Of a stretch of DNA of 64,000 nucleotides, positions 34,983 through 39,405 are shown in pieces (position 1 is the stretch's first letter; the number at the start of each line of letters is the position of its first letter). The position numbers and the translations under genes are program-made. The notes under the pieces were generated by a model. The model had not been told where the DNA came from, searched no databases, and saw only the letters and a program-made list of their open reading frames with translations. Origin of the DNA: Candidatus Binatia bacterium (GTDB taxonomy: Bacteria > Desulfobacterota > Binatia > Bin18); NCBI GenBank assembly GCA_022826945.1, contig JAJDTY010000043.1:1-64000 (forward strand), in the 5' to 3' direction.

Positions 34983-36632
34983 CTAACCCTCGCCCCCTTG
35001 GGGGAGAGGGGAATTAGCAGCGTCCGGCGCGTGCCTGACAAACTCTACCGTCAGCCGGATATCCGGCTTCAGCAACCCGCTCACATAGCAGCCGCGCTTG
35101 GCCCGTTCGAGAAGAATCTGCAAATCCTGCTCCGAAGCCGCACTCCACACTGCCAGGGTTAAGGCTATTGCTTTCACATGACCCTTCGGTGGTGCTTTGG
35201 CCTGCCCGGCTATCCGTTCAATGGCAATCTTGCGACGCCGGGCGGCCGCTTTGAAGGCAATCGTCATGCAGGAAAGAAGAGCGCCAAGGAAGGCCGTGAC
35301 TGGGTCCGGGCCGATGTCCTCTCCGCCGTCGCTCGCCGGCTCATCAAGGTTCCAGACATGACCGTGGCTCCGCACCTGAACGGTATAGCGATCACCGGCC
35401 GATACCGAGCGGACTTCCCGTTTGCCCAACGGCTCTTGAGACGGCGGCGCTTCCGACTGTTGGCTTCCGACCGTTGAGTCAAATTCTTCCAAGGCCACTT
35501 TGAGGCCCTGACTCAAGCGGGAGGCCGCTACTCCGTCCGCTACCCGATGGTCATACGCGATGCTGAGCGTCAGCATCGGCCGAGCGATAATCTGCCCGTT
35601 ATGCACGACCGGCCGCTCTTCAATCGTGCCCACAAAAACGAGGATGGGTTCACCCAGATTGATAACCGGCGTTCCAGCCCGAATGCCGAACATGCCGAGG
35701 TTGGAGACAGTCAGGCTGGCCTGACCCATATCGGCCGACTGCAACTGCCCCCCACGAGCGGCTTCAACCAACCGCTGCCTTTCCCTCACAAGCGATGTGA
35801 TAGACAGGCCGTCCGCTCTGCGGATAACCGGGACCAGCAGGCCGCGCGGCGAGTCAACAGCAAAGCCGATATCCACGCCGTCATAGAGTATGAGTTCTTC
35901 GTTTTCGACCGTGCCGTTGAGATCGGGCAGTCCGGCCAGCACGCGCGCCGCGGCGTATAAAATCAGATCGTTGAGCGTCAACTCGGAAATGTCCGTTCTG
36001 AGTCGCTCCCGGACCGCTTGCAGCCCGCTGGCGTCGACATCGACCATCTGGACAATATGCGGAATGGTCTGCCAGGCCGCCTGGACTCGACGGGCGGCGG
36101 CCTTCCGTATGCCGGTCAAGGGGCGGCGTTCGCGCTCGGTCCGTAGGGATGCACTATGAGCAGCGGCCGCTGACTGCTGGCTGGCAACAGCGCTTTCCGC
36201 AGCTCGCTCTACATCAGCCGCGGAAATCACGCCATCCGCGGAGGACGGCGTCAGGGTCGAAAGATCGATGCCGCGTTCAGCGGCCAACCGTTTGGCCTTT
36301 GGCGAGGCGAGGACTCGTCCTGGGCGGGACGCTTTTTGCTGTTGGACAACCGGTTCAACCGGCAACGGAGTGGGTGCGGTGCCCGCCTGGACCGGAGCGT
36401 CGCCAATTTCGGCAATAACGGTATGAATCGGAACCTCTTCGCCTTCTTGGACCACAACGTGGAGCGTTCCACTCGCCGTCGCCTCAAGATCGTACGTGGC
36501 CTTGTCCGTCTCCACCGTGACGAGCAAGTCGCCGGCAGCAACGCGCTCGCCGTCTTTACGGTGCCACTGCATAACCACACCCTCGGTCATGGCCTGGCCG
36601 AGTTTGGGCATCACGACTTTGGTATTTTGCAC
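34983..36632 (-). CDS. Lipoyl dihydrolipoamide acyltransferase (E2) fused to an OsmC peroxidase domain
   Basis: 549 residues in one uninterrupted frame. Domains: lipoyl domain 1-76 with Lys44 in ETDKATYD; peripheral-subunit-binding domain about 105-145 (RVLASPKAKRLAAERGIDL); 2-oxoacid acyltransferase catalytic domain about 170-385 with the HRxxD motif (His362, Asp366); linker; and an OsmC/Ohr-like domain about 405-533 with the two peroxidatic Cys, Cys455 (LLSCMTIAF) and Cys515 (RGCYVSGLL). E1 beta and E1 alpha genes follow in order, so it is the E2 of a 2-oxoacid dehydrogenase. The last nine residues (SPLPQGGEG) are read from an intergenic repeat. OsmC proteins are reduced by lipoyl-E2, so the fusion is functionally sensible. 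Confidence 0.92.
   Translation of the reverse strand: MQNTKVVMPKLGQAMTEGVVMQWHRKDGERVAAGDLLVTVETDKATYDLEATASGTLHVVVQEGEEVPIHTVIAEIGDAPVQAGTAPTPLPVEPVVQQQKASRPGRVLASPKAKRLAAERGIDLSTLTPSSADGVISAADVERAAESAVASQQSAAAAHSASLRTERERRPLTGIRKAAARRVQAAWQTIPHIVQMVDVDASGLQAVRERLRTDISELTLNDLILYAAARVLAGLPDLNGTVENEELILYDGVDIGFAVDSPRGLLVPVIRRADGLSITSLVRERQRLVEAARGGQLQSADMGQASLTVSNLGMFGIRAGTPVINLGEPILVFVGTIEERPVVHNGQIIARPMLTLSIAYDHRVADGVAASRLSQGLKVALEEFDSTVGSQQSEAPPSQEPLGKREVRSVSAGDRYTVQVRSHGHVWNLDEPASDGGEDIGPDPVTAFLGALLSCMTIAFKAAARRRKIAIERIAGQAKAPPKGHVKAIALTLAVWSAASEQDLQILLERAKRGCYVSGLLKPDIRLTVEFVRHAPDAANSPLPQGGEG
34986..35011. terminator. CCCTC-CCCCC hairpin repeat at the end of the E2-OsmC gene
   Basis: The sequence CCCTCGCCCCC followed by TT and GGGGGAGAGGG folds into a near-perfect hairpin. 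The same type of repeat is widespread between bacterial genes and when translated reads SPLPQGGEG, as it does here at the C-terminus of the E2-OsmC protein. It lies between convergent genes and may serve as a terminator. Confidence 0.5.
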
Positions 36633-36639
36633 ACCAGCC

Positions 36640-37611
36640 TCAGTCAGCGAGCTCTTTTACTGCCCGATAAATATCGTCCGCTGAAGGAACAATGGCATCG
36701 ACCAGATGCTGGCTGGTCGGAATCGGCACGTCGGGAATGGCCAGGCGCTTGAACGGTTTGTCCAGATAAGGCAGGGCTTCTTCCACGAGCAGAGCCCCGA
36801 TCTCCGCCCCAACTCCGAGCGTGCGATAGGCCTCTTCAACCACAATACAGGCCCCGGTCTTTTTGACCGACTCGATAATGGTTTCGCGGTCGAACGGATT
36901 CAGGGTACGCGGGTCGACGATCTCGACCTCGATGCCTTCCTGGCTCAGCCGCTCCGCTGCTGCAAGTGAACGGCGCAGCATGTCCTGCCAAGCCACAATC
37001 GTCACGGCTTCGCCCTCGCGGCGGACGACCGCTTTGCCAAAAGGTGTCAGGAGCTCTCCGTCCGCCACCTCATCCCGCATTTGATACAGCAGTTTATGCT
37101 CAAAATAGATGACCGGGTTATCCAGTCGAATCGCCTGCTTGAGCAGACCCTTGGCATCTTCCGGTGTTGAGGGCACGGCGCACAACAGGCCGGGAGCGTG
37201 CATGATAAAGGCTTCGGGGCAGGCCGAATGCTCTGGCCCAAAGCCCGAGCCGCCCGAGGGGGCTCGCACCACCAGCGGAATCGTATGCGCCCCGCCGTGC
37301 ATATAGCGCCACATGCCGGCCTTAAAGAAAATTTCATCACCCGCGGTGATAACGAAATCGGCAAACTGGAGTTCCACCACCGGCCGCAGGCCCATTGAAG
37401 CCGCCCCCACACCGGCCCCGACCATCACGCTCTCGGAGATAGGCGTATCGAACACACGATCCGGACCAAACTTTTCAAGCAGTCCGTCGGTGACTTTAAA
37501 AATCCCGCCCCAGACCGCAACATCCTGACCGTACAGGATCACATTTTCATCGCGCTGCATTTCTTCGGCGAGAGCATCGTTGATCGCCTGACTATAGGTC
37601 CGTGTTGGCAT
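36640..37611 (-). CDS. 2-oxoacid dehydrogenase E1 component, beta subunit
   Basis: 323 residues from the ATG at 37609-37611; the longer frame upstream overlaps the E1 alpha gene. Segments: TYSQAINDALAEEMQRDENVILYGQDVA, FDTPISESVMVGAGVGAASMG, FADFVITAGDEIFFKAGMWRYM and VVEEAYRTLGVGAEIGALL. It is the pyruvate/acetoin-type dehydrogenase E1 beta subunit, forming an alpha2beta2 heterotetramer with the E1 alpha encoded upstream. The E2-OsmC gene follows 7 bases after its stop. No E3 (lipoamide dehydrogenase) is in the window. Confidence 0.95.
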   Translation of the reverse strand: MPTRTYSQAINDALAEEMQRDENVILYGQDVAVWGGIFKVTDGLLEKFGPDRVFDTPISESVMVGAGVGAASMGLRPVVELQFADFVITAGDEIFFKAGMWRYMHGGAHTIPLVVRAPSGGSGFGPEHSACPEAFIMHAPGLLCAVPSTPEDAKGLLKQAIRLDNPVIYFEHKLLYQMRDEVADGELLTPFGKAVVRREGEAVTIVAWQDMLRRSLAAAERLSQEGIEVEIVDPRTLNPFDRETIIESVKKTGACIVVEEAYRTLGVGAEIGALLVEEALPYLDKPFKRLAIPDVPIPTSQHLVDAIVPSADDIYRAVKELAD

Positions 37612-37634: not shown

Positions 37635-38585
37635 TCACTCCGCATACACATCTTGCAGAGCGACTTCCGGTGCGAGCAGCGGGGCCGCGCGCATGGCCGC
37701 TACAGCCGCTTCGACCTGTTGGTCTGCGTCGGCCTGAATGTCGTCTACCTCCGACTGCGTCAGGATGCCCCGGTCGCACAGGGTCTGTTGCAGCTTCGGG
37801 AGGGGATCTTTTTCCGCCACAGTGTCGATGTCGGTCCGGTATTCCTGCTGGTCGGCCACATAATGCCCTTGCAGCCGTGTCACCTTGGCTTCAATCAGCG
37901 TTGGGCCGTGACCGGCCCGTGCCCGCGCCACGGCCTGTTCCATGACTTCGTACACTGCCACCGGATCATTCCCGTCGACGACTACGCCAGGGACGTTGTA
38001 GCCTGCGGCCCGGTCCGCGATATTCTCGACCGCGGTCGAGCGGCTGGTTGGCATGGAAATCGCGAAACCGTTATTCTCACAAAAATAGATGCAGGGCAGT
38101 TTCTGCACCGCGGCCCAGTTGAGCGCTTCGTGGAACGGGCCCCGGTTCGCGGTCCCATCCCCAAAGAAGTAAGTCACGACCGTGTCCGGCTGCTTGCGCT
38201 TGAGCGCCATGCCCACGCCAACCGAGACAACGAAGCTGCCGCCCAAGGTTCCGCTCTCACCCAGAATCCCCTTTGGCACGTCCACAACGTGCATCACCCC
38301 GCCCTTGCCTCGACTGGTCGCGCCCTCCTTGCCGGCCATATCGGCCAGCATATCGGCCAGGCTCACACCCCGGGCGACCATATACGCCACGCCGCGATGG
38401 CCGTACAGAATATAGTCGTCGGGTCGCAAGGCTTCGATGGCGGCGATCTGCGCCACCTCCTGGCCAGCGCCAACGTGCAGCGCAGGCGGGAGTTCGCCAG
38501 CCATGGCCAGCTCAACAATTTTGGCCTCAAAGCACCGTGCCAGCACTGAGTTCCTGTACACTCTGACGAGTTGTTCCTGATCCAT
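37635..38585 (-). CDS. 2-oxoacid dehydrogenase E1 component, alpha subunit
   Basis: 316 residues. The TPP motif is FFGDGTANRGPFHEALNWAA followed by the FCENNGFAIS Asn-Asn end, about 30 residues apart. LHVGAGQEVAQIAA and LYGHRGVAYMVARG near the N-terminus are the acetoin/branched-chain-type E1 alpha pattern. The C-terminal segment QGHYVADQQEYRTDIDT carries phosphorylation-loop-like residues. It decarboxylates a 2-oxoacid (pyruvate, acetoin-type or branched-chain) and passes the acyl group to the lipoyl-E2. The SDR upstream (38611) may be in the same operon, 25 bases away. Confidence 0.95.
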   Translation of the reverse strand: MDQEQLVRVYRNSVLARCFEAKIVELAMAGELPPALHVGAGQEVAQIAAIEALRPDDYILYGHRGVAYMVARGVSLADMLADMAGKEGATSRGKGGVMHVVDVPKGILGESGTLGGSFVVSVGVGMALKRKQPDTVVTYFFGDGTANRGPFHEALNWAAVQKLPCIYFCENNGFAISMPTSRSTAVENIADRAAGYNVPGVVVDGNDPVAVYEVMEQAVARARAGHGPTLIEAKVTRLQGHYVADQQEYRTDIDTVAEKDPLPKLQQTLCDRGILTQSEVDDIQADADQQVEAAVAAMRAAPLLAPEVALQDVYAE

Positions 38586-38610: not shown

Positions 38611-39405
38611 CTAGGCTAGCCCAATATGCTGGATAATCCCGCCATCAACGGCAAATGCTTCGCCGGTCACAAAACGTGACTGATCGCTCGCCAGGAAGAG
38701 CGCCACATCGGCTACATCTTCCGGCGTCCCGTTGCGCTGGAGCGGGGTGTTGCGGGCTAGGAGATCGCTGATATTCTTCTGGCTGATTAAGGTATCGTGA
38801 ATCATTTCGGTGTCGATCACGCCGGGGCAGAGCGTGTTGGCACGGATGCCTTTGGGGCCATAGGTCACCGCAATCGCCCGGGTCAGGGCCAGAATAGCAC
38901 CTTTGCTAGCCGTGTAGGCATGCGCGTCCTGAGCTCCGCGCAGAGCGGCAATGGAGGCGGTATTGATAATGACCCCGCCGCCGCGTTCGATCAGCTGAGG
39001 AATCCCGTATTTGCAGAACAGGAAGATTCCACCGACATTGATATCTATGATGCGCCGCCAGTCATCCTCGGTACAATTGACGATATCGCTCATGGCAATG
39101 CCGAAGCGCTGCGTCGCCGAGTAGCCGATCCCGGCGTTGTTATACAGGATGTCAAACCCGCCAAAGGCGTCTTGGGCGGTTTGCAGAACGGCTTGCACAT
39201 CCGCGGCTTTCGATACATCACCGGCCGCTCCAACCGCCTCGCCCCCGGCATCTTTAACCGCGGCAACCGCGGCCTCGACAGACTCCGCATCCAGGTCGTT
39301 CATTACGATCTTTGCCCCTTCTGAGGCAAATCGCTTGGCAGCCACCAGCCCCTGCCCCCGCCCGGAGCCGGTAATCAGAGCGATTTTGTTTTCCAGTTGT
39401 CCCAT
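38611..39405 (-). CDS. Short-chain dehydrogenase/reductase
   Basis: 264 residues with all SDR motifs: TGSGRGQGLVAA, YNNAGIG, the catalytic Ser in NTASIAA, and Tyr-x3-Lys in HAYTASKGA. The C-terminal segment FVTGEAFAVDGG is typical of the classical family. Upstream of E1 alpha on the same strand, it could supply or remove a 2-oxo or hydroxy intermediate for the dehydrogenase complex, e.g. a diol or hydroxyacid; the substrate is unknown. No extension or deletion is seen. Confidence 0.93.
   Translation of the reverse strand: MGQLENKIALITGSGRGQGLVAAKRFASEGAKIVMNDLDAESVEAAVAAVKDAGGEAVGAAGDVSKAADVQAVLQTAQDAFGGFDILYNNAGIGYSATQRFGIAMSDIVNCTEDDWRRIIDINVGGIFLFCKYGIPQLIERGGGVIINTASIAALRGAQDAHAYTASKGAILALTRAIAVTYGPKGIRANTLCPGVIDTEMIHDTLISQKNISDLLARNTPLQRNGTPEDVADVALFLASDQSRFVTGEAFAVDGGIIQHIGLA

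What the first reader, a model, noticed from the sequence alone, without database searches (positions are those of the whole stretch)
34983..36632. Lipoyl-E2 acyltransferase fused to an OsmC peroxidase domain
Seen: one uninterrupted frame with a lipoyl Lys44, a PSBD, the HRxxD acyltransferase motif and a C-terminal OsmC domain with both peroxidatic cysteines (455 and 515), in an operon with E1 beta and E1 alpha. Known: Ohr/OsmC peroxidases use the lipoyl group of E2 proteins as electron donor, reduced by lipoamide dehydrogenase. Inference: this chain couples a 2-oxoacid dehydrogenase directly to peroxide removal, so the lipoyl arm can serve either acyl transfer or peroxide reduction. I do not know of a described E2-OsmC fusion.
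Basis: partly seen in the sequence, partly recalled or inferred. Interest (0 to 1): 0.85.

Follow-up and report, generated by a model that had tools for sequence, protein, structure and literature searches.

The report
Dehydrogenase E2 with fused OsmC domain
Some uncultured bacteria (Binatota) carry a core metabolic enzyme whose swinging lipoyl arm is built into the same chain as a two-cysteine redox domain of the OsmC family; the pairing is conserved and looks selected, but that it destroys peroxides is a guess that the sequence only partly supports.

Summary
On the minus strand at 34983-36632 one 549-aa frame holds lipoyl (Lys44), E3-binding, 2-oxoacid acyltransferase and OsmC domains, downstream of SDR, E1alpha and E1beta. 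It is no artefact: 22 of 148 genomes of the class carry the E2-OsmC pair (20 as one frame, 2 interrupted), in two families, down to about 35% identity; E1alpha-E1beta-E2-OsmC stand in this order in 19 of 22, the other three being cut by contig ends. Both OsmC cysteines are kept in 22 of 22, and the OsmC part evolves under purifying selection like the acyltransferase. Free relatives of this OsmC type lie by a DsbD/CcdA-thioredoxin membrane protein (9 of 12 loci) or before GST and LLM genes. I read it as a dithiol redox domain served in cis by the lipoyl arm. 'Peroxidase' is weaker: the Ohr catalytic Glu is Val in 22 of 22, its Arg is not conserved, no Ohr model is reached, and a published esterase-OsmC fusion showed no peroxidase activity (PMC5113044). 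Literature listings showed no E2-OsmC fusion. New variant of a known kind; substrate open.

The parts
34983..36632 (-). E2-OsmC fusion protein, 549 aa, GTG start
36405..36620 (-). lipoyl domain, residues 5-76
   Evidence: Pfam PF00364
36501..36503 (-). Lys44, expected lipoyl attachment site
   Evidence: K in 21 of 21 aligned rows that reach this column (2 of 23 rows do not reach it)
36207..36314 (-). E3-binding domain, residues 107-142
   Evidence: Pfam PF02817
35478..36137 (-). acyltransferase catalytic domain, residues 166-385, with His362 and Asp366
   Evidence: Pfam PF00198; H and D in 22 of 22
35421..35477 (-). linker, residues 386-404, variable in length and sequence among relatives
   Evidence: alignment
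35043..35420 (-). OsmC domain, residues 405-530 (Pfam match 437-530)
   Evidence: Pfam PF02566; predicted fold matches OsmC/Ohr structures
35268..35270 (-). Cys455, counterpart of the peroxidatic Cys of Ohr/OsmC
   Evidence: kept in 22 of 22
35088..35090 (-). Cys515, counterpart of the resolving Cys
   Evidence: kept in 22 of 22
36640..37611 (-). E1 beta subunit (start taken at the Met of MPTRTYSQ; my choice)
   Evidence: Pfam Transket_pyr and Transketolase_C; NCBIfam NF006667 over cut-off
37635..38585 (-). E1 alpha subunit
   Evidence: Pfam E1_dh; nearest solved chains are PDH E1 alpha
38611..39405 (-). short-chain dehydrogenase upstream of E1 alpha on the same strand
   Evidence: present at this place in the window and in 8 other loci of the family, absent within 2.2 kb in G014 and beyond the contig end in G012 and G015

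Best explanation
A 2-oxoacid dehydrogenase acyltransferase that carries, after a complete E2 core and a variable linker, a two-cysteine OsmC-type thiol-redox domain. Shown: the architecture, its conservation in two Binatota families, the kept cysteines, selection on the domain, the E1alpha-E1beta-E2 gene order. Inferred: the dihydrolipoyl arm on Lys44, loaded with electrons by E1 or by lipoamide dehydrogenase, swings to the OsmC domain and reduces its Cys455-Cys515 disulfide, and the reduced domain then reduces a small oxidised substrate. That may be an organic peroxide or another oxidant such as a disulfide; the sequence does not say which. The lipoyl arm would thus have two outlets, lipoamide dehydrogenase (the E3-binding domain is kept) and the OsmC domain.
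Against: No biochemistry. Two genomes keep a free OsmC gene before the same GST-LLM pair with E1 and E2 absent, so OsmC may serve that pathway and the fusion may matter less than it looks. The window genome has a free paralogue of the same type and two further OsmC-family genes, so the cell may have this activity without E2. The full-length model is weak (pLDDT 70.7, pTM 0.43), so reach of the lipoyl arm to the OsmC site is untested. Three of 12 free f1 loci lack the thioredoxin neighbour in the stretch seen.
Confidence: 0.55

Rival explanations
1. One reading: the OsmC domain is a lipoyl-dependent organic hydroperoxide peroxidase of the Ohr/OsmC kind, coupling 2-oxoacid oxidation to peroxide removal. 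Electrons go from E1 or E3 to lipoyl to Cys515-Cys455 to ROOH.
For: Both Cys kept in 22 of 22. Ohr is reduced by lipoylated proteins (PMC4069020, PMC5962072, passages). Fold match to Ohr. LLM oxidoreductases near the fusion in both families, and a regulator with a below-cut-off match to the iron-sulphur regulator SufR in some f2 loci, would fit an oxidative setting.
Against: The Ohr Glu51 counterpart is Val in 22 of 22 and the likely Arg19 counterpart is R in 5 of 22. No Ohr model matched by the fused domain. EstRM, an esterase-OsmC fusion with both Cys, showed no significant activity on H2O2 or cumene hydroperoxide with DTT (PMC5113044). The introduction of PMC4069020 excepts the YhfA subfamily from the peroxidases.
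Confidence: 0.3
2. The OsmC domain is a redox enzyme of the neighbouring gene cluster (GST, LLM oxidoreductase) that became tethered to E2 because both were in one operon; the lipoyl arm is not its donor and the linkage serves dosage or location.
For: Free OsmC directly before GST and LLM in G019 and G056; fused OsmC before LLM in eight f2 genomes, five with GST between and three without.
Against: In two f2 genomes (G051, G055) and in f1 the fused gene is not beside that GST-LLM pair, yet it is fused to the same E2 clade. The OsmC tree leans towards two separate joinings to one E2 lineage, which would argue for a functional tie.
Confidence: 0.2
3. The OsmC domain is a redox switch: its disulfide state senses oxidants and alters E2 assembly or activity, with no turnover of its own.
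For: Two conserved Cys, attached at the E2 C-terminus, which in known E2 cores lies at subunit contacts (recalled, from no call). PMC5113044 reports that removing the OsmC domain raised esterase activity on short-chain substrates (passage).
Against: Free copies under their own genes exist, which a switch for E2 would not need.
Confidence: 0.15
4. Artefact: frameshift, misassembly or a run-on frame joins two genes.
For: One of 22 relatives is split in the linker (G001).
Against: 20 of 22 are single frames, in many assemblies including two single-contig genomes.
Confidence: 0.01

Closest known systems
2-oxoacid dehydrogenase E2 (PDH, BCKDH or acetoin type)
   Same: Lipoyl, E3-binding and catalytic domains, DHRxxDG motif, E1alpha and E1beta upstream
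   Different: About 150 extra residues with an OsmC domain at the C-terminus; scores below the cut-off of every NCBIfam E2 equivalog matched, so the acyl substrate is open
Ohr / OsmC lipoyl-dependent peroxidases
   Same: Fold, two cysteines at matching positions
   Different: Glu replaced by Val, loop Arg not conserved, 19% identity to E. coli OsmC in the alignment, covalently joined to the presumed electron donor
Esterase-OsmC fusions (EstRM family, PMC5113044; six hydrolase-OsmC proteins of the phylum; perhaps PDB 9wo1, by its length and match position)
   Same: C-terminal OsmC domain fused to a metabolic enzyme; both Cys kept in the EstRM family; role of the OsmC domain unknown
   Different: Other enzyme partner, no lipoyl arm
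OsmC-related (seleno)protein, NF041052
   Same: Only NCBIfam model matched by the domain alone (48.8 bits); Sec stands in some OsmC-like proteins (PMC1088965, table passages)
   Different: Cut-off of 95 bits not reached

Membership tests
2-oxoacid dehydrogenase E2 | Lipoyl domain with target Lys | tested here: met
   Pfam; K44 in 21 of 21 rows that reach it
2-oxoacid dehydrogenase E2 | E3-binding domain | tested here: met
   PF02817 40.5 bits, cut-off 23.7
2-oxoacid dehydrogenase E2 | Acyltransferase domain with catalytic His and Asp | tested here: met
   PF00198; H362 and D366 in 22 of 22
2-oxoacid dehydrogenase E2 | Genes for E1 with it | tested here: met
OsmC superfamily (Pfam OsmC) | Score over curated cut-off and OsmC fold | tested here: met
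   44.7 against 27.5 bits; fold
Ohr/OsmC peroxidase subfamilies | Two catalytic Cys | tested here: met
   22 of 22
Ohr/OsmC peroxidase subfamilies | Catalytic Glu (XfOhr Glu51) | tested here: not met
   Val in 22 of 22; placed by alignment to E. coli OsmC and to Ohr 3eer
Ohr/OsmC peroxidase subfamilies | Catalytic Arg on the mobile loop (XfOhr Arg19) | tested here: inconclusive
   Likely counterpart R in 5 of 22, but the loop aligns poorly
Ohr/OsmC peroxidase subfamilies | Lipoyl-dependent peroxide reduction | not testable with these tools
   needs an enzyme assay
OsmC-related (seleno)protein NF041052 | Score over the curated cut-off | tested here: not met
   48.8 bits against 95

The most novel reading that the evidence does not exclude
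A 2-oxoacid dehydrogenase with its own built-in oxidant outlet: the OsmC domain reoxidises the dihydrolipoyl arm with a peroxide or disulfide, so the complex can run as a 2-oxoacid:oxidant oxidoreductase without lipoamide dehydrogenase and NAD+, and evolution made this joint twice on one E2 lineage with two different OsmC lineages.
Probability: 0.2. Interest if true: 0.85.

Novelty: new variant of a known kind. Interest (0 to 1): 0.6.

Why it matters
Ohr-type enzymes are known to draw electrons from lipoylated proteins, but in trans. A natural, conserved, perhaps twice-formed fusion of donor and acceptor makes that electron path testable in one protein and asks whether central carbon enzymes can be wired straight to thiol redox chemistry. 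It also gives the poorly understood non-Ohr OsmC proteins candidate partners: a lipoyl arm, a DsbD/CcdA-thioredoxin protein, GST and LLM oxidoreductases.

Tried and rejected
Artefact and chance: rejected. A single fusion event: not settled. The E2 tree puts all 22 fused E2s on one side of a branch against 11 unfused, 100/99 (midpoint root, long-branch warning). The OsmC tree, rooted on six hydrolase-OsmC and two free OsmC proteins, puts the f1 tails with two Dehalococcoidia free copies (90/87) and the f2 tails with the f1 free paralogues (84/89). A tree with one fusion origin is 5.4 log units worse, AU p 0.066, not rejected. Two narrower groupings, named after a first tree was seen, were rejected (p 0.0095 and 5e-6). 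Long branches and 145 columns limit this. The free copy of G003 (L134) was fetched but not put in the tree.

E2-OsmC outside the two families: none found among the other 91 class genomes, in 395 genomes drawn from the phylum, where only the window's own gene is one, or in genome contigs with two OsmC-motif patterns (24 loci, of which 17 fused, 3 free in Chloroflexota, 3 free in Binatota, 1 remnant). Of the phylum frames over 400 aa with an OsmC match, six were run through Pfam and all six are hydrolase-OsmC; the others were not. The frames of 836 aa (G115) and 720 aa (G421) were fetched and show no E2 match by tblastn. A fusion with a distant OsmC type would be missed.

Full report
What is there. 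The reported frame is on the minus strand, 34983-36632, 549 aa from a GTG. hmmscan against Pfam finds, in order and each over its curated cut-off, Biotin_lipoyl 5-76, E3_binding 107-142, 2-oxoacid_dh 166-385 and OsmC 437-530. Lys44 sits in the TDKA turn, His362 and Asp366 in DHRVADG, and the only cysteines are 455 and 515. Upstream on the same strand are E1beta, E1alpha and a short-chain dehydrogenase. The 11 unfused E2 proteins of the class that I compared end at about residues 382-392 of the window protein, so the OsmC part is added to a complete E2.

Is it real. A search of 148 genomes of the class with the OsmC part gave 42 genomes with some match; in 22 the matched gene goes with an E2: 12 of 16 genomes of the window's family (f1) and 10 of 41 of a second family (f2). 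Contig lengths and titles tie f1 to Candidatus Binatia/Binatota MAGs and f2 in part to Candidatus Binataceae. Twenty are single frames, one of them (G052) open at its contig's end; G001 has a frameshift in the linker and G015 an in-frame stop in the lipoyl domain. A further genome, G010, has only a remnant in which a stretch of E1alpha abuts a broken OsmC in another frame. Two of the intact ones lie in single-contig genomes. Within the genus (6 genomes, 15 pairs) median dN/dS is 0.16 for OsmC, 0.17 for the acyltransferase, 0.09 for the lipoyl domain.

Neighbourhood. In f1 the order is SDR, E1alpha, E1beta, E2-OsmC in the window and 8 other loci; G014 has no SDR within 2.2 kb, and G012 and G015 are cut. 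Convergent esterase, hydrolase and LLM-family genes follow in the five genus loci that reach so far besides the window, and in G015. In f2 the order is E1alpha, E1beta, E2-OsmC in 8 of 10 genomes, the other two (G051, G052) being cut by contig ends; an LLM oxidoreductase follows in 8 of 10, with a GST between in five of these. The LLM protein's best models are F420-type, below their cut-offs. A regulator with a below-cut-off SufR match lies upstream in three of these genomes (G033, G034, G053). In two f2 genomes, G056 and G019, the regulator, a free OsmC, GST and LLM follow each other without E1 and E2; in G019 a reverse-strand gene lies between regulator and OsmC. G056 has one E2 hit elsewhere, and G019, 85% complete, none at E 1e-40. 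In f1, free OsmC paralogues lie within one gene of a membrane protein like the one of the window genome, which has DsbD_TM and thioredoxin-like domains and a WCGPC motif, in 9 of 12 loci; L135 and L139 lack it in the stretch fetched and L142 is cut by the contig end (Pfam run on 3 of the 9). So this OsmC type recurs with thiol-redox company: a thioredoxin conduit, a GST setting, a lipoyl arm.

History. The fused E2s form one side of a branch, 100/99, against 11 unfused E2s. The OsmC tails do not clearly mirror that: with hydrolase-OsmC and free OsmC proteins of the phylum as outgroup the f1 tails group with free OsmC of two Dehalococcoidia and the f2 tails with the free f1 paralogues. This leans to two separate joinings, with the free G019 gene (L052) among f2 fusions as a possible loss of E1-E2, but one origin is not rejected (AU p 0.066).

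How it works, most likely. Shown: domains, residues, gene order, conservation. Known from others: Ohr is reduced by lipoylated proteins (PMC4069020 introduction and PMC5962072 discussion, passages). Inferred: the lipoyl arm reduces the Cys455-Cys515 pair in cis, giving the complex a second electron outlet next to lipoamide dehydrogenase, which is encoded elsewhere with another E2; lipoate synthase is present. The substrate of the reduced domain is open. Against a plain peroxidase stand the missing Glu and unconserved Arg, the lack of an Ohr model match, and PMC5113044, whose esterase-OsmC fusion with both cysteines showed no significant peroxidase activity with DTT (passages). That assay did not use a lipoyl donor, so it is not decisive.

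Place among known things. By test it is an E2 and an OsmC-superfamily domain; by test it lacks a defining residue of Ohr (Glu not met). In the listings of nine literature searches I saw fused OsmC domains described only with esterases; E2-OsmC did not appear. I file it as a new variant of a known kind.

Noticed in passing
L051:5208-8122; L052:1-3414: In two f2 genomes (G056, G019) the E1alpha-E1beta-E2 section is absent and OsmC stands free before the GST-LLM pair, where relatives have the fusion.
   Followed up: yes
L130-L134, L136-L138, L140: Free OsmC paralogue by a DsbD_TM plus thioredoxin-domain membrane protein in 9 of 12 family loci; in the window's genus a glyoxalase-like gene lies between them.
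   Followed up: partly
L047:2573-3232 (G010): A stretch of E1alpha abuts a broken OsmC in another frame: looks like a deletion through E1beta and E2. The record is titled Klebsiella pneumoniae although its other genes match the window's at 57-84% identity, so it is probably mislabelled.
   Followed up: partly
window 34983-35030: The last residues of the frame (SPLPQGGEG) vary or are missing in relatives and look to me like an intergenic repeat read through at the gene's end.
   Followed up: no
G061:C123, G062:C205, G101:C63, G102:C88, G147:C62, G084:C16: E2 hits in frames of 650 to 870 aa in other families of the class: other E2 fusions or just long open frames.
   Followed up: no
L049:1796-2446: Reverse-strand frame between the regulator and E1alpha in f2 with no Pfam match.
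   Followed up: no
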